DNA of 61,613 nt from contig CAJXNM010000016.1 of assembly GCA_913057135.1 (NCBI GenBank), positions 1 through 61,613 on the forward strand, read 5' to 3'. This DNA is from an uncultured Halieaceae bacterium. GTDB taxonomy: Bacteria > Pseudomonadota > Gammaproteobacteria > Pseudomonadales > Halieaceae. Position 1 is the first letter of the stretch, and each line of letters opens with the position of its first letter. A program made the translations under genes and the position numbers. The notes under the pieces were generated by a model. It made no database searches. It saw only the letters and a list, made by a program, of their open reading frames with translations, and was not told where the DNA came from. This document shows positions 7,187-17,364 of the stretch, piece after piece.

Positions 7187-8863
7187 TCAGGCGCTGTCGC
7201 GCAGCTCCCGACGCAGAATTTTACCGACGTTTGTTTTCGGCAGCTCGTCGCGGAATTCTACCTGTTTTGGCACCTTGTAGGCGGTCAGGTGCTCACGGCA
7301 AAACGCGATCACCGCCTCCTCCGTGAGCGCTGGATCTTTGCGAACCACAAACATCTTCACCGCTTCGCCGGTACTGGCATGGGGTACGCCCACAGCCGCG
7401 CATTCGAGTACGCCGGGATGCCGGGTTAACACGTCCTCGAGCTCGTTGGGATAGACGTTAAAGCCGGACACCACAATCATGTCTTTTTTACGATCGACAA
7501 TGCGCAAATAGGCATCAGGCTGAATCACCGCCACATCACCGGTAGCGAACCACCCGTCTTTTAGTACTTCCGCTGTGGCCTCGGGTCGCTGCCAATAGCC
7601 CATCATGACCTGAGGCCCTCGAATACAGAGTTCACCGGCCTGCTCAAGCCCGAGGGTATTGCCCTCTTCGTCGATGACTTTTACGTCGGTTAGCGGCAGC
7701 GGTACGCCAATGGTGCCAATCTGCTGGCCATGGCCCGGATTGGTGGTGGCGACCGGGGATGTCTCGGTTAGCCCATAACCCTCGGAGATCGTACATCCAG
7801 TTACGCTCCGCCACTCGTTGGCAGCCGCTTCGGTCAACGCCATACCCCCGGATAAGGTGACGGCCAGTTTAGAGAAATCGAGAGCCCGAAACCCCGCATG
7901 ATTGCACAGGGCAACAAACAACGTATTCAGCCCGCAGAATAAGCTGGGCTGGTAATCCTTGAAGGCTTTCACCACGCTATCGAGGTCCCGTGGGTTGGGG
8001 ATGTAAACCGTGTGGGCGCCGACAAATAGCCCATACATCGACGCCGTGAACGCATAGATGTGGTACACCGGCAGGGGCTGCATGAACACATCCCCGGCTC
8101 CGTTCAGCCCATGGGTTGCAAACACCGCCTCACACTGGAGCACATTCGCCACTAAATTTCGGTGAGATAGCATGGCACCCTTGGCGACACCGGTGGTGCC
8201 ACCGGTGTATTGCAGCATAGCCAGCTGCTCGGGCTGAGCCTGCACCGGTGTCAAGGGTTGCTTGGCCCCCTCTTTGAGCACGCCCCGCAGTGTCAGCGCA
8301 CCGGGAATGTGGAACGGCGGCACCATCTTTTTAATGTATTTAGCCACATTGTTGATCAGCTGCCGTTTCGGGGTTGGGTGCAAATCCGCCAACTCGGTAA
8401 CGACCACCCGGGTGACGCCGGTGCGGGGCAACACGGTGGCTGCGGTTTGGGCCACGTTTGCCTGTACCACTAACAATTTGACGTCCGCATCGTTGAATTG
8501 ATGCTCCAGCTCCCGCTCGGTATAGAGCGGATTGGTATTCACAACCACCATGCCCGCACGCAGCGTGCCCAATACCGCAACCAAATATTGCACGAGGTTG
8601 GGCATTTGAATGGCTACACGGTCACCGACCGCCAAGCCCGACTGATGCTGCAACCAAGAACCGAACTGGGCGGAATAGCTGTCGAGCTCTGCAAAGGTCA
8701 GGCTATGGCCCAAACTACTGCAGGCTTTAAGGGTTGCGTGGCGGCGAAAGGCATCCTCAAACAGCGCCACGATATTGGGGTATCGATCGATGTCCAGCTC
8801 GGTGGCGATATTTAATTCGTGAAGCCTGTTTGTAATAAGGGTGTGAATAGCGTCGGTTGTCAT
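7187..8863 (-). CDS. fadD: Long-chain fatty-acid--CoA ligase
   Basis: Activates free fatty acids to acyl-CoA by way of an acyl-adenylate, at the inner face of the cytoplasmic membrane, the first step of beta-oxidation. At 558 residues it has the length of E. coli FadD (561). The AMP-binding signature YTGGTTGVAKGAMLSH starts near residue 218, followed by EGYGLTETSP, the WFATGD motif and DRKKDMIVVSGFNVYPNE, and the C-terminal catalytic lysine region KTNVGKILRREL. It is divergent from a MaoC-type hydratase gene 167 bases away, which fits a lipid-metabolism pairing. Confidence 0.95.
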   Translation of the reverse strand: MTTDAIHTLITNRLHELNIATELDIDRYPNIVALFEDAFRRHATLKACSSLGHSLTFAELDSYSAQFGSWLQHQSGLAVGDRVAIQMPNLVQYLVAVLGTLRAGMVVVNTNPLYTERELEHQFNDADVKLLVVQANVAQTAATVLPRTGVTRVVVTELADLHPTPKRQLINNVAKYIKKMVPPFHIPGALTLRGVLKEGAKQPLTPVQAQPEQLAMLQYTGGTTGVAKGAMLSHRNLVANVLQCEAVFATHGLNGAGDVFMQPLPVYHIYAFTASMYGLFVGAHTVYIPNPRDLDSVVKAFKDYQPSLFCGLNTLFVALCNHAGFRALDFSKLAVTLSGGMALTEAAANEWRSVTGCTISEGYGLTETSPVATTNPGHGQQIGTIGVPLPLTDVKVIDEEGNTLGLEQAGELCIRGPQVMMGYWQRPEATAEVLKDGWFATGDVAVIQPDAYLRIVDRKKDMIVVSGFNVYPNELEDVLTRHPGVLECAAVGVPHASTGEAVKMFVVRKDPALTEEAVIAFCREHLTAYKVPKQVEFRDELPKTNVGKILRRELRDSA

Positions 8864-9030
8864 AGGTCTCGTCTTATTTGTTGTGGTTAACGACGTTTCT
8901 TAGGGTGAATGACAGGAGCTGTCGTATCATCCTGTGCCACGAACGAGCGGTCAATTGTCCACACTTGTAACGGTTGACACGCTCTACTCAGAAACAGCAC
9001 AAAACTGCGTCACAAACGAGGAGCCACAGG
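8864..9030. promoter_or_regulatory. Divergent fadD / maoC control region
   Basis: This 167-base gap must carry promoters for both flanking genes. A perfect TTGACA hexamer lies at 8974-8979, facing the hydratase gene, but no convincing -10 hexamer follows at normal spacing. A short inverted repeat GACAG-gag-CTGTC at 8911-8923 could be an operator. No FadR or PsrA consensus was recognised. Confidence 0.35.
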
Positions 9031-9546
9031 ATGACGTCCACCGATCAGGCACAAACCGTTACCAACAAAACCTTTGATGAGATCAATGTTGGCGATACCG
9101 CTAGTTACGCGCGGTTGGTAACCCATCGTGAGGTACAGCTATTTGCCGCTGTATCGGGAGATCACAACCCGGTTCATCTTGATCCCAGCTACGCCGAGGG
9201 CACCCAATTTGGCGAGTGCATAGCCCACGGTATGTTGACCGGTGCATTTATCTCCGCCGCTATTGCCATGGAACTACCCGGTCCTGGCACTATCTACCTG
9301 GGGCAAACATTGAAGTTCCGAGCACCGGTCACCCTCGGTGACACCTTAACGGTGGCCCTTGAAGTCACTGAAAAGCATCCCAGCAAGCCCTGGGTAACGA
9401 TCGATTGCCGCGTACTTAATCAGAACGATAAGACCGTGGCCCTGGGTGAAGCGCAGGTCATGGCACCCACCAAAAAAGAGACGGTCACCGTGGTACCGCC
9501 GCCGGCGATTCAGCTTGTCGATGACGACTCGACAACAAACTGCTGA
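9031..9546 (+). CDS. MaoC-family (R)-specific enoyl-CoA hydratase
   Basis: A 171-residue single hot-dog-fold hydratase of the PhaJ type, expected to hydrate trans-2-enoyl-CoA to (R)-3-hydroxyacyl-CoA. The catalytic dyad is visible in SGDHNPVHLD (Asp44, His49), with AEGTQFGECIAHGML and FRAPVTLGDTL as further family motifs. The ATG at 9031 was chosen over an upstream TTG (8974) because an AGGAG-type ribosome site sits just ahead of it and the family starts here. PhaJ enzymes often feed polyhydroxyalkanoate synthesis, but no pha genes are present in the window, so that use is unproven. The last 37 bases overlap the convergent gene. Confidence 0.9.
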   Translation: MTSTDQAQTVTNKTFDEINVGDTASYARLVTHREVQLFAAVSGDHNPVHLDPSYAEGTQFGECIAHGMLTGAFISAAIAMELPGPGTIYLGQTLKFRAPVTLGDTLTVALEVTEKHPSKPWVTIDCRVLNQNDKTVALGEAQVMAPTKKETVTVVPPPAIQLVDDDSTTNC

Positions 9547-10019
9547 GGATCGACGTAGAGCAGGTGCAGTGCCACTACCGGCTGCACTGGATCTGGCTCT
9601 ACCCCCAGCATAAGAGCGTTTACCATGCCGTCGTGGTTGGTGATACCGGGTACACCGAAGATACGCGTGCTGGCATAACTGTCGCTAGTGCTATCTTGGT
9701 CTTTGATAGGATCAAAAACAGTGATGGCAGCTCCGGCTCGCAGTGTGTCTGACAGGTTGGCAACCAGTGCCAGTAGGCCGTCGCGGAAAGCGGAGAAATT
9801 CAATACCCCATTAAACCCGTCGGCATCCATACTCAGATCGAAGCGTAGCTCACCGCCATCTTCCATCCTGAGGCGGGTCAAAGAGACTCTACGCCCCTCT
9901 TCCAGTTCGCGAAAAATACGCTTAGCGGTGGTACGCTGGGTTTCTAGTACCCCCTGATGCAGCAGGTTTGCGGCGATGGTGGCAAACTGTTGGGTGTCGA
10001 TGGTTTTGCTTTCACGCAT
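9510..10019 (-). CDS. Conserved hypothetical protein, function unknown
   Basis: A 169-residue soluble protein with no signal peptide or membrane segment and no family I can name. It begins with a helical stretch (FATIAANLLHQGVLETQRTTAKRI), has a beta-rich middle (RFDLSMDADGFNGVLNFSAF) and an acidic-serine tail. The ATG at 10019 is preceded by GAAGGGCAG at good spacing, so it is preferred over a GTG two codons earlier. Its 3' end overlaps the convergent hydratase gene by 37 bases. Codon use and composition look native. Confidence 0.7.
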   Translation of the reverse strand: MRESKTIDTQQFATIAANLLHQGVLETQRTTAKRIFRELEEGRRVSLTRLRMEDGGELRFDLSMDADGFNGVLNFSAFRDGLLALVANLSDTLRAGAAITVFDPIKDQDSTSDSYASTRIFGVPGITNHDGMVNALMLGVEPDPVQPVVALHLLYVDPQQFVVESSSTS

Positions 10020-10136
10020 GGTCACTGCCCTTCGGAAAAGGCAGCAGTGTAGCCGCTAATAGGGCCAATGCTCTAGCGCCCCGCTTACACCCCGCCCTTT
10101 GCTAAGCTCTGGGTGTGACAACAGAGACCCATACGC

Positions 10137-12248
10137 TTGATACAGCACGACAACCAACCCTGGACACTGGCCCCTGCACCGACCCTTGAATGGTTGGACG
10201 CCACACCGCGCTCGACGACCTTCGACGACATCTATTTTTCGCCCCAAGACGGTCTCGCCGAGAGCAACTATGTCTTTATTGAGGGTGCTGGGGTTGAAGC
10301 GCGCATCCGTGAACTATCGAGCAGGCAAACGCTCACCATCACAGAGACCGGATTTGGTACCGGATTGAATTTTCTGCTGACCTTATCGCTCTGGTTACGT
10401 TACCGACCCCCAGGCAGTCGTCTGCACTATATTGGCATCGACGCCTACCCTCTGCGCCATTCAGATGTCAGCAGAGCACTGACTGCCTTTCCTGAGCTTC
10501 ACAACTGCAGTCAGTGGCTATTGAACCGCTGGCCTCATCCTGTAAAGGGCTGTCATCCCTTCATTGATGATGAAGCGGGCGTACGTCTGGATTTGTGGTG
10601 GGAGGACGCCACCGAGACCTTAAGGGACTTAGCATCCTCCGAAAGGCGCTGGGTCGATATTTGGTATCTCGATGGCTTCGCGCCCGCCCGCGAGCCGGCG
10701 CTATGGTCACCAGCGCTGCTCGGCGCCGTTGCCGCCCTGAGTAAGCCAGAAGCCAGCTTTACTACCTTTACCGCCGCCGGTGACGTCAAGCGCCAGTTAC
10801 AGGCGCTGGGCTTTGAGGTCACTAAGCGGCCGGGGTTTGGGCGCAAACGCGACTGCTTGCAGGGCCAGTTTCGATTGTATGAAAAGGACTGCACTTATGA
10901 AGAGCACCGCCCTCATGAAGAGCACCATCCTGCCCATTCCGCCCCTGTCCATTCCGCCCCTGTCACGAACACACTGACGCCCTGGGATATGCCGTCTACC
11001 ACATCGCCACCCAACACCGCTTTGGTCATCGGTGCCGGCTTGGCCGGCGCCTGTGTAGCAAGGCGCTTGGCCGAGCGAGGCATCCGTGTCACCGTGCTTG
11101 AGGCAAAAACCATTGCCAGTGGCGGTTCAAGTAATTTACAGGGCATCACCTACACGCGCTTATCGCGCAAACACAACCCACTCAGTGACTTCTCAATTCT
11201 CAGCTATTTGTTCGCCACACGTCATTATCAGCAGCTGGTAGCCGCTGGACGCCTGGGTGAGAGCGACGGCAGGCGCTGCGGTTTTGCTCAGCTGGGTATC
11301 GACGCAGCGACCGCCCGCTACCTTGAGCAAACCCTGGGGGATGCGCCTGAGTTCGCACAGTGGCTCACCCCCGATACAAGCGCCGAGCACCTGGGCATTG
11401 CGCTTGAGACACCGGCACTGCTTTTTCCGGATGCTTTTTGGCTAAATCCCCCGGCTGTGTGTGAAGAGCGGCTAGATCACCCTCTCATCGAGGTCATCGA
11501 AAACACCGGTCAAGTCGCCCTTAGCAACGTACAACAGCTCGGCGAGAGGGGATTCGCGGCCAATGCCACCCCCCCATGGCAGGCAACCCATCTCAGCACC
11601 GGCAAAACCTATGCTGCCGACATTGCCCTATTAGCCAACGCAGGCGCTGCACTGGACCACGCAGGTCTCGACTGGCTGCCTTTGCAGCAAATTCGCGGCC
11701 AAACAAGCCACATGGCTGCAAGCCCGGTTAGTGAAAAACTGAAAGTAGCCTTGTGCCACGAAGGCTATTTTCCGCCGGCGCGCCACGGTTTGCATTGCAT
11801 GGGTGCCAGCTATGGCCCCAATGACACCGCACTCGATGAACGGGGCGCTGATCACGCCCACAACTTGGCGACTTTGGCTGCGGCGGTTCCCGCCCTGCGC
11901 CGGGGCCTAGCCGATGAACCCCAGGGCGGGCATGTGGCGCTACGCTGTACCAGCACCGATTACTTACCACTGGCGGGCAGTGCCCCCGATCGGGAGCGTT
12001 TCAATACCTGCTATGCGGCACTGGGGCAGCGTAAAACCCAGCTGATAGCTGAAAACCAACCCGCGCTCACGGGGCTTTGGTTACTCATTGGGCTGGGCTC
12101 ACGAGGTCTGTGCTCTGCGCCCTTATTAGCCGAGCACGTGGCCAGCCAAATCTGCAATGACCCACCACCGCTTCCGCGAGCACTTGCAAGGGCGTTGAGT
12201 CCAGCGCGCTTTTTGGCTCGGGCGCTCATCCGAGGAAATCCATTGTGA
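10137..12248 (+). CDS. mnmC: Bifunctional tRNA mnm5s2U34 methyltransferase / FAD-dependent cmnm5s2U oxidoreductase
   Basis: Completes the 5-methylaminomethyl-2-thiouridine modification at the wobble position of tRNA. The N-terminal MnmD methyltransferase domain (residues ~1-245) has TFDDIYFSPQDGL, the SAM-binding ETGFGTGLNFL and WYLDGFAPAREP. The C-terminal oxidoreductase has the FAD dinucleotide motif VIGAGLAGACVARRL near residue 295 and the family end GLGSRGLCSAPLLAEH. At 703 residues it is somewhat longer than E. coli MnmC (668); part of the excess is a repetitive His/Pro-rich linker encoded by tandem repeats at 10897-10963. Translation starts at TTG. The stop overlaps the GTG start of the next gene. 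Confidence 0.95.
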   Translation: MIQHDNQPWTLAPAPTLEWLDATPRSTTFDDIYFSPQDGLAESNYVFIEGAGVEARIRELSSRQTLTITETGFGTGLNFLLTLSLWLRYRPPGSRLHYIGIDAYPLRHSDVSRALTAFPELHNCSQWLLNRWPHPVKGCHPFIDDEAGVRLDLWWEDATETLRDLASSERRWVDIWYLDGFAPAREPALWSPALLGAVAALSKPEASFTTFTAAGDVKRQLQALGFEVTKRPGFGRKRDCLQGQFRLYEKDCTYEEHRPHEEHHPAHSAPVHSAPVTNTLTPWDMPSTTSPPNTALVIGAGLAGACVARRLAERGIRVTVLEAKTIASGGSSNLQGITYTRLSRKHNPLSDFSILSYLFATRHYQQLVAAGRLGESDGRRCGFAQLGIDAATARYLEQTLGDAPEFAQWLTPDTSAEHLGIALETPALLFPDAFWLNPPAVCEERLDHPLIEVIENTGQVALSNVQQLGERGFAANATPPWQATHLSTGKTYAADIALLANAGAALDHAGLDWLPLQQIRGQTSHMAASPVSEKLKVALCHEGYFPPARHGLHCMGASYGPNDTALDERGADHAHNLATLAAAVPALRRGLADEPQGGHVALRCTSTDYLPLAGSAPDRERFNTCYAALGQRKTQLIAENQPALTGLWLLIGLGSRGLCSAPLLAEHVASQICNDPPPLPRALARALSPARFLARALIRGNPL
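10897..10963 (+). repeat. Two short in-frame tandem duplications in the MnmC inter-domain linker
   Basis: An 18-base unit starting ATGAAGAGCACC occurs at 10897-10914 and 10915-10932, followed by a perfect 15-base duplication CCATTCCGCCCCTGT at 10934-10948 and 10949-10963. Both periods are multiples of three, so the reading frame is kept, and the protein shows EEHRPH/EEHHPA and HSAPV/HSAPV. They sit exactly between the two enzyme domains. Confidence 0.85.
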
Positions 12249-13120
12249 GCTGGTATGTACATCTGACAGCTGACCGAGCCAAGCGCTCAAAGAGTTCGCA
12301 TGTCCATACAGGGCCCTACTTCAAATACGCTGTCAGCCTGTTGTTGATGCTGCTCTGGGCCACCCTTGCTCACCCTAAGGAATCCTCCAATAGCAATAGC
12401 ACCGCTGAAAGCATTGTGAGTCCCGTGCGTTACCGCGTGCGGGTACTGGAGCGCAAACCCTTTGATACCCGTAACTTTGTACAGGGACTCGAGTTCCACA
12501 ACAATCACCTATATGTGAGCTCAGGCCTCTACGGCCAATCCGCGGTACGGCGTTATACCTGGCCTGAGCTCGAGTTAGACGCCGACAAATCCCTCCCAGA
12601 CAATCTCTTTGCCGAGGGCATTACTCGCCTCGGCGAGCGGCTACTGGTACTCACCTGGCGAGCACGGCAGCTGCTGATACTCGACCGCCACACTCTCGAT
12701 ATTCTGGGCAAAGTTGAATTACCCGGCGAGGGCTGGGGCATCACCCACCACAAGGATACGGTTTATTTTAGTGACGGCTCCCACCGGCTTTTTCATTTCA
12801 ACGTGAACGGCAAGGGCTCGCTGGGGGTTATCAATGTGACGTTAGCGGGAAAGCCCGTTAATCGACTCAACGAGCTCGAATGGATTGACGGGGAAATTTG
12901 GGCCAATGTTTGGCAAACCGACACCATCGTACGTATAGACCCGGGCTCTGGGCAGGTAACAGGGGCCATCGATTTAGCAGGCCTGTTATCTGAGGAGGAT
13001 CGTTCACCCGGCACCGATGTTCTCAATGGCATAGCAAAACACCCAATTACCGGCGATATCTGGGTGACCGGGAAACGCTGGCCAGCATTATTCCGGATAA
13101 GCCTTGAAGCGGTGGACTGA
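12245..13120 (+). CDS. Glutaminyl-peptide cyclotransferase (glutamine cyclotransferase family)
   Basis: A 291-residue exported beta-propeller-like enzyme that would convert N-terminal glutamine of peptides or proteins to pyroglutamate. A hydrophobic signal segment (residues ~28-45, SLLLMLLWATLAHP) is followed by the PF05096-type domain: FVQGLEF, SSGLYGQS, FAEGITRL, GEGWGITH, NELEWIDGEIWANVW and VLNGIA. The GTG start overlaps the mnmC stop (GTGA), giving translational coupling although the two functions are unrelated. No internal ATG precedes the signal segment in frame. Confidence 0.85.
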   Translation: MSWYVHLTADRAKRSKSSHVHTGPYFKYAVSLLLMLLWATLAHPKESSNSNSTAESIVSPVRYRVRVLERKPFDTRNFVQGLEFHNNHLYVSSGLYGQSAVRRYTWPELELDADKSLPDNLFAEGITRLGERLLVLTWRARQLLILDRHTLDILGKVELPGEGWGITHHKDTVYFSDGSHRLFHFNVNGKGSLGVINVTLAGKPVNRLNELEWIDGEIWANVWQTDTIVRIDPGSGQVTGAIDLAGLLSEEDRSPGTDVLNGIAKHPITGDIWVTGKRWPALFRISLEAVD

Positions 13121-13209: not shown

Positions 13210-16164
13210 ATGGAAGCCAAAAGCGAGCAGACCGCCACCGTTAACACCTTCGTGCAGCAACGTGCAGTCGTCATCGATGCACTGAAACTCACCGTCGAAG
13301 AGTACCTGCACCCAGCAACCGGTGCCGTGCACCTGCACCTGGCGGCGGATAATCCCGAAAACGTGTTTATGGTGGCCCTGCGCACGGTACCCGAGGATTC
13401 CTCTGGGGTAGCACATATTTTGGAGCATACGGTGCTCTGTGGCAGCGAACGGTTCCCGGTGCGCGATCCCTTCTTCATGATGCTGCGTCGCTCACTTAAC
13501 ACCTTCATGAATGCATTCACCAGCTCCGACTGGACCGCTTATCCGTTTGCCACCCAAAACCGAAAGGACTTCGACAACCTGTTATCGGTATATCTGGACG
13601 CGGTGTTTTTCTCCCGCCTCGACCCGCTCGATTTCGCACAAGAGGGCCACAGGGTTGAATTTGAAACCCGTGATGACGGCGAGCAGCAGCTGGTGTTCAA
13701 AGGGGTCGTCTTCAATGAAATGAAAGGCGCCATGTCATCAACGCCATCAGTACTGTGGGATCGGCTGAGTCATGAACTATTCCCGACCAACACCTATCAC
13801 TTCAACAGCGGGGGCGATCCCGAAGCAATCCCTGATCTGAGCTATCAACAGTTGCGCGAGTTCTACAACTCCCATTACCACCCGAGCAACGCCATTTTCC
13901 TAACCTTCGGAGACATTCCTGCAGAGCACCATCAACAGACTTTTGAGTCACTGGTGTTACATCGATTTGAGCGCTCTACAGACACCATTGAGGTGGCACT
14001 GGAGCAACCCTTTAAAGAACCCAAGCGCGTCCAGCACCGTTATGCCCTTGATGGTGACGACTGCACTGCCGGAAAAACACACCACGTCCTGGGTTGGAAG
14101 CTGGGCGAGAGTGCCGATTTAGTCAGTATGCTAGAAGCGCAATTGTTATCGGCTGTGCTCATGGAAAACAGCGCCTCTCCGCTCATGCACTACCTTGAAA
14201 CCAACACCTTAGGCTCAGCGCCCTCCCCGCTTTGCGGCGTGGAGGAGTCCATGCGGGAAATGGTGTTCTGCTGCGGCATTGAAGGCAGCGAACCGGAGTG
14301 CGCAGAGCAATTCGAGCAAGAGGTACTCAAGCTACTTGAGCAGGTGGCAACCACCGGCATCGAGGCTGAGCGACTCGAGGCCATCTTGCACCAGATTGAG
14401 CTGCATCAGCGGGAAATCACCGGTGACGGCATGCCCTACGGTTTGAACCTGATGCTGCGTGCACTTGGAGCAGCCACACACTATGGCGACCCGGTGGCGG
14501 CACTAGACCTAGACCCGGTTTTAGCTAGCATCCGAGCGCGCTGTGCGGACAGCAACTACATCCCAGAATTGGTGCAAAAACTGTTGCTCAACAACCCCCA
14601 TCGCGTATTACTCACGGTACAACCCGATACCGAACTATCAGCACAACGTCGCCAGGCGGAAAGGGCAAAACTCGATGCCCTTGAACAGTCCCTGGCAGAT
14701 CAGGAACGCAGCCATATCCTCGATCTCACAGAAAAATTAAAAGCGCGACAAGCCGCCGAAGATGATCCTAATTTATTACCGCGCGTTGAGCTCAGTGATA
14801 TTCCCGCTCAGATTCCGGAACCACAGCCAGCCATTCATACCGAAGGCAGCAAGCAGCACTATAGCTACTCGGCGGGAACCAATGGTCTGGTCTATCAGCA
14901 GATCGCGCGTCCCCTACCGCCACTCACAGCCGAGCAATACGCACGGCTACCCCTGCTTTCAGGCTTGATGGGTGAAGTGGGGCTGGGTACTTCCAGTTAC
15001 CTCGATGTGCAAGATCGACACTCGGCCACGGTGGGCTCGCTGGGTGCCGCTACCTTAACCCGCAGCAGCCGCGACGATGTTCAAGACTGTAAGGCCTACT
15101 TCATTGTGTCATCAAAGGCCCTTGCCAACCGTGCCGATGAGCAGATGGCGCTCATGCTGGACACCCTCAAGGACACCCGCTTTGATGAACGCAGTCGCAT
15201 TAGGGAGCTGATCACACAGCTGCGATCCCGCAAAGACCAGTCCATCACCGGCAGTGGCCATAGTCTGGCCATGAACGCCGCCACAGCAGGCATGAATCCA
15301 CTTGCTCGCTTCAGCCACGAGCAGGGGGGCCTGGAGGGAATCCGCCGCTTGCGAGCGCTCGATGAGGCGATTAAACACGATGGTGCACTCGACGAACTGC
15401 TAAGCCAATTGCAATCGCTGCACGAACAGTTGCAGACCGCTAGTGGCACAGCCGTGGCAACCATTGGTGACACGGAACATCTAGCCCGCGCCCAGCAACT
15501 GGCGAGGACTGCCGCTTCACAGTTAACCATCGATGCCAATGCCCAGACTTGGCAGCCTGATGCTATTCGAGAATCGCGACGCGAGTATTGGGTAGCGAAT
15601 ACCCAGGTTAATTTCTGCGCAAAGGCTTTCCCGACAGTAGCGGCAGGGCATCCGGACGCACCGGTACTAACGGTACTCGCGGCCTTTTTGCGTAACGGCT
15701 TTTTGCACCGCGCTATTCGGGAGCAGGGGGGCGCTTATGGGGGTGGTGCCAGCCACGATGCCAATATCGGTGCCTTTAGGTTCTTCTCTTACCGAGATCC
15801 ACGACTCAAGGGCACCTTGGACGATTTCGATCATGCCATTCGCTGGCTGCTCGATCATCAACACGAACAACTCGCCCTTGAAGAAGCTATCTTGGGCATC
15901 ATTGGCAGTATCGATAAGCCCGGATCTCCCGCCGGAGAGGCGAAGAAGCATTTCCATGAGTCACTTTTCGATCGCACAGCGGAGCATCGGGGGGCATTCA
16001 GACAAGGTGTCATTAACACCTCACTCGACGATTTGCGGCGAGTGGCTGACACCTATTTGTTAAATCCGGACAGCAGCATCGCCGTCATTACCAGTGTCGA
16101 GCAGGCGCGGCAAGAACAGGCCTATCTCGAGAGCGCGCAGCTCATCCGTCGGGAGTTACTCTAG
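13210..16164 (+). CDS. M16C-family zinc metalloprotease (PreP / presequence-protease type)
   Basis: A 984-residue peptidase of the insulinase superfamily that degrades short unstructured peptides. The inverted zinc motif HILEH places ligands His69 and His73 with catalytic Glu72, followed by the family signature TVLCGSERFPVRDPF and SLNTFMNAFTSSDWTAYPFAT; the distal zinc glutamate region (NEMKGAM) follows. A second, catalytically inactive M16 half makes up the C-terminal part, with AIREQGGAYGGGA as its conserved substrate-binding Arg/Tyr segment. A GGGAG ribosome site lies just before the ATG. No signal peptide is seen, so a cytosolic role in peptide turnover is likely. Confidence 0.93.
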   Translation: MEAKSEQTATVNTFVQQRAVVIDALKLTVEEYLHPATGAVHLHLAADNPENVFMVALRTVPEDSSGVAHILEHTVLCGSERFPVRDPFFMMLRRSLNTFMNAFTSSDWTAYPFATQNRKDFDNLLSVYLDAVFFSRLDPLDFAQEGHRVEFETRDDGEQQLVFKGVVFNEMKGAMSSTPSVLWDRLSHELFPTNTYHFNSGGDPEAIPDLSYQQLREFYNSHYHPSNAIFLTFGDIPAEHHQQTFESLVLHRFERSTDTIEVALEQPFKEPKRVQHRYALDGDDCTAGKTHHVLGWKLGESADLVSMLEAQLLSAVLMENSASPLMHYLETNTLGSAPSPLCGVEESMREMVFCCGIEGSEPECAEQFEQEVLKLLEQVATTGIEAERLEAILHQIELHQREITGDGMPYGLNLMLRALGAATHYGDPVAALDLDPVLASIRARCADSNYIPELVQKLLLNNPHRVLLTVQPDTELSAQRRQAERAKLDALEQSLADQERSHILDLTEKLKARQAAEDDPNLLPRVELSDIPAQIPEPQPAIHTEGSKQHYSYSAGTNGLVYQQIARPLPPLTAEQYARLPLLSGLMGEVGLGTSSYLDVQDRHSATVGSLGAATLTRSSRDDVQDCKAYFIVSSKALANRADEQMALMLDTLKDTRFDERSRIRELITQLRSRKDQSITGSGHSLAMNAATAGMNPLARFSHEQGGLEGIRRLRALDEAIKHDGALDELLSQLQSLHEQLQTASGTAVATIGDTEHLARAQQLARTAASQLTIDANAQTWQPDAIRESRREYWVANTQVNFCAKAFPTVAAGHPDAPVLTVLAAFLRNGFLHRAIREQGGAYGGGASHDANIGAFRFFSYRDPRLKGTLDDFDHAIRWLLDHQHEQLALEEAILGIIGSIDKPGSPAGEAKKHFHESLFDRTAEHRGAFRQGVINTSLDDLRRVADTYLLNPDSSIAVITSVEQARQEQAYLESAQLIRRELL

Positions 16165-16208: not shown

Positions 16209-16796
16209 CTATGTAGGCGGTGGGGAATCGACGATCAGGGCACTCAATTTATCGTTAGTGCCCTTGTCATTATTAGCGCTCTGATTGCGCGCTAGGAGGC
16301 TTGATAGCGCTAGCCAGTGGTTGCCCACAGCCGGATCAAATACCTGGGCCATCTGACCTTGAACCTGCCATAACACCACAAAGTGTGGCAGGGGTTCCCT
16401 TAAGAGACGGATAATAGCGGGCGTTGGCAGCGACCGTAGAGCGGTAGCCGGCACCCTTACGCCCTTGGTGCTAATGCCCGCCCGATGACTTAAGCGCTTC
16501 AAGTCAGCCAAACTCAAACCGCCATGGGGGATACCCAACGGCATCTGCCGGTAGTCCTGTTGTGCCCATTGCCAAAGGGCATGCTCGTCGATCGACCCGT
16601 GACCCAACGACTGCAGCACCGCTGCCAGCGCTGCTGCGCCACAGCTATTGATGCGCGACTGTAGCGCATAGTGTGGCAGTTGTCCCCAACTTGGCGGACT
16701 GCAAACAAACATGATGGACCACAGCAACCCGAGCACAGCGGTGTGCCTAAGAAAGCCCCTTAAGCGCGAGCGCCTACCACAACAGACAAGCGCCAC
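16209..16796 (-). CDS. Secreted C39-type (double-glycine) cysteine peptidase
   Basis: A 195-residue stand-alone peptidase C39 domain. Residues 1-38 form a Sec signal peptide (HTAVLGLLWSIMFVCS, cleavage near SWG/Q), so the mature domain should be periplasmic or outer-membrane-associated. The catalytic residues line up: oxyanion Gln46 and Cys52 (INSCGAAAL), His138 (LPHFVVLW) and Asp154 (FDPAVG). Unlike bacteriocin exporters there is no ABC transporter attached. The GTG start follows an AGGGG ribosome site, 11 bases after the upstream small membrane-protein gene. It resembles FapD-type periplasmic C39 proteins in layout. The 94-residue Gly-Gly protein encoded two genes upstream is the obvious candidate substrate (inference). 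Confidence 0.85.
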   Translation of the reverse strand: MALVCCGRRSRLRGFLRHTAVLGLLWSIMFVCSPPSWGQLPHYALQSRINSCGAAALAAVLQSLGHGSIDEHALWQWAQQDYRQMPLGIPHGGLSLADLKRLSHRAGISTKGVRVPATALRSLPTPAIIRLLREPLPHFVVLWQVQGQMAQVFDPAVGNHWLALSSLLARNQSANNDKGTNDKLSALIVDSPPPT

Positions 16797-16807
16797 CCCT
16801 TCAACCC

Positions 16808-17047
16808 CTAAGACTTATCCCACAAACCGCTGCGGTGTGCTGTCACCGCGACCAGCACGCCACTGCCGCCAAAAAAGATGGTAGCCATGACGGCCAGTGA
16901 CACAGGTTTGAGCAACAGAAAGACACCCCCCATAAGCAATGACCACACTGCCATGGCCAGCAGATATTGCTCCAACCACCGACGCCCCACATCGCGCTCG
17001 TGTTGGTCATCCGCTAATTTGCGTTTTAACTGCTGAATTGCATTCAT
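16808..17047 (-). CDS. Small two-helix membrane protein in the C39 operon
   Basis: A 79-residue protein with a charged N-terminal helix (QQLKRKLADDQHERDVGRRW) and two predicted membrane helices at ~28-46 and ~50-69, ending in a short basic/polar tail. A strong GAGGAG ribosome site is placed 8 bases before the ATG, good evidence for expression. No family recognised. It lies between the Gly-Gly protein and the C39 peptidase, 32 and 11 bases from its neighbours, so it probably serves the same process, for instance as a membrane anchor or immunity-like partner; neither role can be shown from sequence. Confidence 0.78.
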   Translation of the reverse strand: MNAIQQLKRKLADDQHERDVGRRWLEQYLLAMAVWSLLMGGVFLLLKPVSLAVMATIFFGGSGVLVAVTAHRSGLWDKS

Positions 17048-17079
17048 GCCATCGCTCCTCGGGGGCTGTGTTGTGGGCC

Positions 17080-17364
17080 TTAGGGCAGATTTGTATTGAA
17101 GCTGGGTCCCTTAGGCGCATAGTGCGGTACGTAAATACCCCAATAAACACCCATCAAAGCCAAATCAATAGACGCTACACCCAGCGCCAACGCCAAAGGT
17201 GCAAAACCACCACGCTGACTTTCCATGGTGATTGGATCCAGATGTTCAACGGTGGGCATATGCGGCTCACTGGCTGGTGGCGTACTAGTAGTTGCCCCAT
17301 TGGCTGTGAGCGTAGTGGCAGTGATGAGTCCTGCGACGATTACAGTTGGTATATTCATTTTCAT
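17080..17364 (-). CDS. Small secreted protein with Gly-Gly motif, candidate C39 substrate
   Basis: A 94-residue protein with a clear Sec signal peptide (residues 1-24, VIVAGLITATTLTANGA), a Pro/Ser/Thr spacer, then HLDPITMESQRGGF, which looks like the tail of a double-glycine leader (Gly52-Gly53), and a hydrophobic Gly-containing segment 54-80 with a short polar tail. Cleavage after Gly53 would release a 41-residue hydrophobic peptide. An AGGGA ribosome site precedes the ATG at 17364; a TTG two codons earlier is less likely. It is first in a three-gene operon ending in the secreted C39 peptidase. No family is known to me. The leader-like reading of the GG motif is inference. Confidence 0.75.
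   Translation of the reverse strand: MKMNIPTVIVAGLITATTLTANGATTSTPPASEPHMPTVEHLDPITMESQRGGFAPLALALGVASIDLALMGVYWGIYVPHYAPKGPSFNTNLP

What the first reader, a model, noticed from the sequence alone, without database searches (positions are those of the whole stretch)
16209..17364. Secreted C39 peptidase operon with a small Gly-Gly protein, possibly a novel peptide-maturation system
Three genes are packed on the minus strand: a 94-residue Sec-exported protein with ESQRGGF at Gly52-Gly53 and a hydrophobic tail, a 79-residue two-helix membrane protein with a strong ribosome site, and a C39 peptidase with all four catalytic residues (Gln46, Cys52, His138, Asp154) and its own signal peptide, but no ABC transporter. 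Known C39 domains usually cut double-glycine leaders inside ABC exporters. Here both enzyme and putative substrate would be exported by Sec and meet in the periplasm, releasing a 41-residue hydrophobic peptide. FapD of the amyloid system is the nearest known layout, but no fap genes are present.
Basis: partly seen in the sequence, partly recalled or inferred. Interest (0 to 1): 0.75.

Follow-up and report, generated by a model that had tools for sequence, protein, structure and literature searches.

The report
Exported peptide paired with periplasmic protease
A marine bacterium carries a conserved gene set that probably exports a small membrane-loving protein and a matching cutting enzyme separately, so that the enzyme trims the protein outside the cytoplasm; the same kind of recognition tag appears beside similar enzymes in many other bacteria, including ones with genes for amyloid fibres.

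Summary
The three genes are real and lie where described. The window is from a Luminiphilus-type Halieaceae genome. The cassette (Sec-type small protein, 2-TM protein, stand-alone C39 peptidase) recurs in the family: a profile of the small protein matches 61 of 140 genomes, and 55 of 56 fetched loci have a same-strand C39 just downstream. A leader matrix built only from Halieaceae also finds such leaders next to stand-alone C39s elsewhere: 43 of 77 loci, against a mean of 0.8 with permuted columns. FapE beside FapD and FilA-like proteins beside FilB-like peptidases are among the partners. Best reading: a Sec-then-C39 maturation relay that releases a ~41-residue hydrophobic helix in the envelope. 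Cleavage is inferred, not shown. It is a new variant of a known kind (FapD-type periplasmic C39) and offers a testable recognition rule for FapD.

The parts
17080..17364 (-). Small Sec-type protein, 94 aa, putative C39 substrate
   Evidence: profile matches in 61 of 140 family genomes; purifying selection
17293..17364 (-). N-terminal Sec-type signal peptide, about residues 1-24 (boundary estimated by eye)
   Evidence: sequence; hydrophobic stretch at residues 3-21; helix 6-23 in the model
17206..17247 (-). Double-glycine-type leader, residues 40-53 (EHLDPITMESQRGG; -14 to -1): L42 at -12, D43 at -11, M47 at -7, G52 at -2, G53 at -1
   Evidence: position counts in 31 relatives; one search score 25.1, best non-cassette Sec-like ORF in the window and 7 relatives' loci 7.7
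17083..17205 (-). Predicted mature core, residues 54-94, hydrophobic helix 54-82 with invariant D67, G76, Y78
   Evidence: dN/dS 0-0.11 in the pairs where it is defined
16808..17047 (-). Small membrane protein, 79 aa, N-terminal charged helix and two hydrophobic stretches (28-46, 51-69)
   Evidence: family model found between the two genes in 39 of 56 loci with the script's position filter; no room for it in L038-L044
17055..17060 (-). Likely ribosome-binding site GAGGAG of the 79-aa gene
   Evidence: by eye
16209..16796 (-). Stand-alone C39 cysteine peptidase, 195 aa, N-terminal signal or anchor, catalytic Q46, C52, H138, D154

Best explanation
The cassette is a Sec-then-C39 maturation relay. 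The small protein and the peptidase each cross the inner membrane by Sec. In the periplasm the peptidase docks the leader helix that follows the signal peptide (hydrophobic anchors at -12 and -7, glycine at -2), as ABC-linked C39 domains do with double-glycine leaders in the cytosol, and cuts at or next to the Gly-X pair. This releases a conserved ~41-residue, mostly helical hydrophobic peptide that probably stays in or on the inner membrane, with the 2-TM protein as an auxiliary partner in many species. Shown: gene conservation, synteny, leader register, intact catalytic residues, purifying selection. Inferred: export route, cleavage, exact bond, location and role of the product.
For: Same-strand C39 directly downstream in 55 of 56 loci; 39 of 40 among loci not used to build the C39 profile. 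Cys in 55 of 55, His and Asp in 54 of 54 with the residue covered. Leader positions in 31 relatives: -12 hydrophobic 31/31, -11 S or D 22/31, -7 L/M/I/V 27/31 (A in the other 4), -2 G 31/31. These are the positions that matter for LahT (-7 and -12 sensitive, -4 Thr accepted, -3, -5 and -8 tolerant; PMC6363468 section 8) and fit the ComA consensus quoted there, L-12 xxx E-8 L-7; -4 is most often Thr here. A class IIb bacteriocin model matches 7 of 26 relatives at E up to 10, best 0.0069. The C39 model's top Foldseek hits are PCAT1, a leader-bound double-glycine protease (6mpz) and ComA. Outside the family, 43 of 77 stand-alone C39 loci have a same-strand Sec-like neighbour scoring 12 or more with the Halieaceae leader matrix; 200 column-permuted matrices gave mean 0.8, maximum 6. 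Partners include FapE (346 bits, cut-off 250) and FilA-like DUF6160 proteins. FapD needs its catalytic Cys, and FapE is the only Fap protein reported with complete N-terminal processing (PMC5557850 section 8). The leader is about as constrained as the core.
Against: The residue at -1 is charged or polar (R, E, K, Q) in 23 of 31, whereas characterised C39 leaders typically end in GG, GA or GS. No cleavage has been observed for this family. Gln46 is not conserved in 6 of 55 cassette C39s. One genome (62% complete MAG) has the C39 with the other two genes apparently deleted, and G087 has a stand-alone C39 but no small-protein match. 19 of 77 stand-alone C39 loci had no neighbour scoring 8 or more. 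Control ORFs also reach 12 at times: 5 of 155 on the opposite strand and 3 of 78 same-strand ones 1.5 kb or more away. The leader statistics count related loci, not independent events.
Confidence: 0.62

Rival explanations
1. A bacteriocin (microcin-like) system: the released hydrophobic helix kills related cells, the 79-aa 2-TM protein is the immunity protein and C39 matures the toxin.
For: Gene order of peptide then small membrane protein; weak class IIb bacteriocin match in 7 of 26 members; an unrelated genus has a classical cytosolic double-glycine peptide with a similar core, GGLGPLAxIGIDLALNG, in 5 of 15 genomes; G781 pairs a Gly-rich, bacteriocin-like protein carrying this leader with a small membrane protein and a C39.
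Against: The core is strongly conserved (dN/dS 0-0.11 where defined) and the cassette keeps its place beside PreP in 6 of 10 genera, unlike typical variable toxins. A group of loci lacks the membrane protein but keeps small protein and C39. No match in the plasmid, phage or viral-contig collections.
Confidence: 0.17
2. The small protein is not a substrate. It is a membrane-anchored partner or inhibitor of the C39, and the invariant Gly followed by Pro at +3 is only a turn before its helix; C39 cuts something else.
For: The -1 residue is free, and Pro at +3 is near-invariant (29 of 31), as expected of a helix N-cap; predicted helix 54-82.
Against: Hydrophobic -12 and -7 at fixed spacing to Gly -2, outside the core, are conserved and also occur with different cargo next to other stand-alone C39s: 49 partner ORFs fall into 13 cargo clusters.
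Confidence: 0.14
3. The C39 acts as a non-cutting chaperone for the small protein, like C39-like domains of some type 1 exporters.
For: Leader docking without a classical GG site would fit a binding role.
Against: Cys, His and Asp are kept wherever the residue is covered in 55 cassette and 77 other stand-alone C39s; in FapD the Cys-to-Ala form does not support secretion (PMC5557850 section 8).
Confidence: 0.07

Closest known systems
FapD and FapE of the functional-amyloid (Fap) system
   Same: Stand-alone, Sec-exported C39 peptidase next to a Sec-exported protein. FapE is the only Fap protein reported with complete N-terminal processing.
   Different: The window C39 scores 43 bits against the FapD cut-off of 330. 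Cargo is a 41-aa hydrophobic helix instead of a fibre-associated protein. No FapE match in the host assembly (that search rang in no control genome, so it is weak). No Fap family other than the weak FapD match among the neighbouring proteins scanned.
FilB and FilA (putative pilus system)
   Same: FilB-like stand-alone C39 (L292, 302 bits, cut-off 475) has a FilA-like neighbour (205 bits, cut-off 220; DUF6160 over its cut-off) with leader EALEDSALSDVTGQ after the Sec signal. Both names rest on below-cut-off matches.
   Different: Different cargo; the window C39 scores 28.9 bits against the FilB cut-off.
Peptidase-containing ABC transporters (PCAT1, LahT, ComA) and double-glycine leader peptides
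   Same: Peptidase fold and leader anchor positions -12, -7, -2.
   Different: No C39-type transporter in the assembly; the leader lies after a Sec-type signal, so recognition would be periplasmic; residue -1 is not restricted to Gly, Ala or Ser in the family.
Classical GG-leader peptide of genus g71 (G246, L159)
   Same: Core GGLGPLAVIGIDLALNG resembles the Halieaceae core (profile E 6.9e-5).
   Different: No Sec signal; leader MRELTQTEVEQVSGG near the N-terminus; no C39 recognised beside it, and the genome's only C39 match is weak and on another contig.

Membership tests
Peptidase C39 (PF03412) | Profile score over the curated cut-off and catalytic Cys, His, Asp | tested here: met
   58.2 bits against 22; C52, H138, D154
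FapD equivalog (NF058616) | Score over 330 bits | tested here: not met
   43 bits
Fap system | FapE homologue in the genome | tested here: inconclusive
   no match in G000, but nothing rang in the control genomes
Fap system | FapB/FapC amyloid repeats and FapF pore nearby | tested here: inconclusive
   no such family named among the flanking proteins scanned; FapF and FapC models were not searched in the genome
FilB (NF050078) | Score over 475 bits | tested here: not met
   28.9 bits
Canonical double-glycine leader peptide | Hydrophobic -12 and -7, Gly at -2 | tested here: met
   -12 hydrophobic 31 of 31, -7 L/M/I/V 27 of 31, Gly -2 31 of 31
Canonical double-glycine leader peptide | Gly, Ala or Ser at -1 | tested here: not met
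   Gly or Ala in 8 of 31 relatives; the window protein itself has Gly
Class II bacteriocin with type 1 secretion | C39-type ABC exporter in the genome | tested here: not met
   only the one stand-alone C39 in G000, assembly 97.7% complete
Periplasmic C39 with leader-bearing Sec partner (FapD-FapE-like arrangement) | Cleavage of the partner by the C39 | not testable with these tools
   needs expression and N-terminal sequencing

The most novel reading that the evidence does not exclude
Stand-alone, Sec-exported C39 peptidases form a general envelope maturation route in Gammaproteobacteria. Their substrates carry a double-glycine-type leader after the Sec signal with a relaxed rule (hydrophobic -12, hydrophobic -7, Gly -2, many residues allowed at -1), and the route serves unrelated cargo: amyloid-linked FapE, FilA-like proteins, and, in Halieaceae, a hydrophobic helical peptide of unknown role.
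Probability: 0.5. Interest if true: 0.78.

Novelty: new variant of a known kind. Interest (0 to 1): 0.62.

Why it matters
The Fap papers I read in part leave FapD's substrate and recognition sequence open (PMC5557850 section 8; PMC6173800 passages), and a 2025 review says FapD is thought to process the FapE N-terminus and the periplasmic region of FapF (PMC12822426, one passage). A simple leader rule found independently in a marine peptide cassette predicts the FapE site to within a residue and can be tested by mutagenesis. It would also separate leader recognition from ABC export, and show that a Gly-charged pair may stand in for Gly-Gly.

Tried and rejected
Linkage to the DASS (CitMHS/TrkA_C) transporter upstream: in the window it is the next gene, and in G246 the GG peptide also follows a DASS gene (39% identity); but only 1 of 5 g71 loci shows it, so I treat it as chance. 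Fast-evolving toxin: disfavoured by dN/dS. Plasmid, phage or viral-contig origin: no match. Pfam/NCBIfam names for the small protein: none; the weak DUF6130 and other hits were ignored. DASS, PreP and glutaminyl-cyclase neighbours were considered as part of the system, but in 4 of 10 genera (Haliea-type loci) the cassette has neither DASS nor PreP within the fetched stretch.

Weak points of the leader test: the Sec-like filter is a crude script rule, not a signal-peptide predictor. FapE-like loci are related; two tandem L287 copies are identical and both counted. Of the stand-alone C39s, I fetched 55 regions from the capped listing and 20 regions from the listing. L299 (Halieaceae), L249 (no C39) and C39 frames of 420 aa or more were left out before counting. 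Among controls, 5 of 155 opposite-strand and 3 of 78 distant same-strand Sec-like ORFs scored 12 or more; four of the five opposite-strand ones (two in L196, one each in L237 and L298) look like leaders themselves. The matrix was trained on 31 Halieaceae rows, so Halieaceae hits are by construction.

Full report
1. The observation. The three genes are as described. On the minus strand, in order: a 94-aa protein (17080-17364), a 79-aa protein (16808-17047) and a 195-aa C39 peptidase (16209-16796), with gaps of 32 and 11 nt. The C39 scores 58.2 bits in Pfam, cut-off 22. The nearest NCBIfam models are FapD (43 bits, cut-off 330) and FilB (28.9, cut-off 475), both far below their cut-offs. The 94-aa protein has no Pfam or NCBIfam match at E up to 1.

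2. Who carries it. Named relatives include Luminiphilus MAGs, Marine gamma proteobacterium HTCC2080, Haliea salexigens and Haliea alexandrii (27 loci); the window is thus from a Luminiphilus-type Halieaceae genome. A profile of the small protein (A3) matches 61 of 140 family genomes and 10 of 28 genera (these include the genomes that supplied the profile). I examined 56 loci from 56 genomes (L053-L056, from genomes without a small-protein match, were left out). In 55 of 56 a C39 lies on the same strand downstream, its domain starting 11-919 nt after the small gene. The miss (L124) is on a contig that ends 429 bases after the small gene's frame. Sixteen of these loci supplied the C39 profile, so the clean figure is 39 of 40 for L111-L150. 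In 6 of 10 genera a PreP (M16C) gene lies beside the cassette; in the other 4 (Haliea-type loci) no PreP or DASS gene was found in the fetched stretch.

3. What is conserved. In 31 aligned relatives (A4) the invariant residues are G52, D67, G76 and Y78. G53 is not conserved: position -1 is R 11, E 7, G 6, K 3, Q 2, A 2. The positions around it do follow the double-glycine leader pattern: -12 is L/M/V/I/F in 31 of 31, -11 S or D in 22, -7 L/M/I/V in 27 and A in 4, -2 G in 31, +3 P in 29. For LahT, changes at -7 and -12 impair cleavage, Thr at -4 is accepted, and -3, -5 and -8 are tolerant (PMC6363468, section 8). Here -4 is most often Thr. A class IIb bacteriocin model matches 7 of 26 A3 members at E up to 10 (best 0.0069).

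4. Selection. Nei-Gojobori estimates from 13 same-genus pairs give dN/dS of 0-0.11 for the core and 0-0.11 for the leader where defined, except one leader value of 0.41 from a very close pair; some synonymous rates are saturated. The signal and spacer give 0.15-0.45 in the RGG group, but only 0.07-0.10 in the RGR group (3 pairs). So the leader is about as constrained as the core, and in the RGG group clearly more than the rest.

5. The peptidase. Cys52 is present in 55 of 55 cassette C39s, His138 and Asp154 in 54 of 54 that cover them, Gln46 in 49 of 55. The AlphaFold model (mean pLDDT 82.5) matches PCAT1 (E 5.3e-8), a leader-bound double-glycine protease (6mpz, 8.7e-8) and ComA (5.2e-7) in Foldseek. 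The small-protein model (pLDDT 74.9) has a signal helix, a short leader helix 44-50 and a long helix 54-82.

6. The middle protein has a charged N-terminal helix and two hydrophobic stretches. A model of it finds a copy between the two genes in 39 of 56 loci under the script's position filter. At least three more (L046, L047, L049) hold a visible copy that the filter missed. There is no room for it in L038-L044, where the C39 domain starts 11-57 nt after the small gene. Gln46 is replaced in five of these seven (L038-L042). I built no tree, so whether this is a single loss is not shown.

7. Beyond the family. Searching 369 class genomes with the C39 profile gave many stand-alone C39s (listing capped). 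Two observations pointed to a shared leader. G556 has seven stand-alone C39s, several preceded by Sec-type proteins of differing sequence that carry leaders such as QFMNDAEMAETQGR. In G781 a Sec-type protein with SVLSHDEMQKTEGE lies about 1.2 kb from a C39. I then tested this with a matrix for -14 to -1 made from the Halieaceae rows only. Of 77 stand-alone C39 loci outside Halieaceae (60 genomes), 43 have a same-strand Sec-like neighbour within 1.5 kb scoring 12 or more; 200 column-permuted matrices gave mean 0.8, maximum 6. By genome it is 35 of 60. Controls in the same loci: 5 of 155 opposite-strand and 3 of 78 distant same-strand Sec-like ORFs reach 12. Among 86 Sec-like ORFs of the window and seven relatives' loci, only the eight cassette proteins reach 10, the next best being 7.7. 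Of the 49 partner ORFs, -1 is R 19, G 13, Q 7, E 5, K 4, D 1, and post-leader sequences form 13 BLAST clusters; the matrix itself favours Gly at -2, and related loci are counted separately. 19 of 77 loci had no neighbour scoring 8 or more.

8. Link to known systems. FilA-like proteins (205 bits or less, cut-off 220; DUF6160 over its cut-off in L292 and L294) beside FilB-like C39s have leaders such as EALEDSALSDVTGQ; these two names rest on below-cut-off NCBIfam scores. [quoted passage not shown] PMC6173800 (passages) says the FapD substrate is yet to be determined. [quoted passage not shown] Full-text searches (listings capped) showed no paper whose title or shown abstract start describes this leader rule or this cassette. 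Besides those named I saw passages of PMC3223724 and PMC12392863. The library lacks most subscription papers.

9. Mechanism. I think the small protein is a Sec-exported precursor, the C39 its envelope maturase, and the product a hydrophobic helix of about 41 residues. Which bond is cut (after -1 or after the invariant Gly -2) is open; the charged -1 residues make the second possible. The role of the product is unknown. Conservation suggests a standing envelope function more than a toxin. A core-like sequence also occurs behind a classical cytosolic GG leader in genus g71 (5 of 15 genomes), which hints at common origin with exported GG peptides, on one weak profile match (E 6.9e-5).

10. Verdict. 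Observation confirmed; interpretation partly supported and widened; new variant of a known kind. The strongest doubts are the absence of any cleavage evidence and the unusual -1 residue.

Noticed in passing
L211, L224, L227, L229, L235, L239 (genome G556): One gammaproteobacterial genome has seven stand-alone C39 peptidases, several preceded by different Sec-type proteins that begin MKKLT; four of them (L211, L224, L227, L235) share FAFHGDVPL before the leader.
   Followed up: partly
L249:7996-8175 (G246) and L302-L305: Classical cytosolic double-glycine peptide MRELTQTEVEQVSGG with a core like the Halieaceae one; in 5 of 15 genomes of genus g71.
   Followed up: partly
L053 (G026), reverse complement of 8401-10400: The start of the small gene seems to run straight into the C39 region: small and middle genes appear deleted, C39 frame intact; fragmentary MAG.
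   Followed up: partly
L043:4637-7628 (G002): The PreP (M16C) gene next to the cassette is split into four frames; pseudogene or sequencing error.
   Followed up: no
window 12245-13120 and 13210-16164: A glutaminyl-cyclotransferase gene (PF05096) and a PreP-like M16C protease gene lie next to the cassette: a run of peptide-processing functions.
   Followed up: no
L069-L071, L114-L118, L146-L150: In Haliea-type relatives the small protein ends in a Gly-rich stretch and a CxxC pair, absent from the Luminiphilus-type sequences in A4.
   Followed up: no
L196:3-452, L237:1848-2222, L298:6026-7036: Leader-like Sec-type ORFs on the opposite strand from the stand-alone C39, so divergent pairs may exist.
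   Followed up: no
L299 (G087): A Halieaceae genome of another genus has a stand-alone C39 without the small protein; its neighbour begins MNFLRNLTAASIVVLSAAASAEQPLTSAQMDGVSAGG, which looks like another Sec plus GG-leader protein although the matrix scored it low.
   Followed up: no
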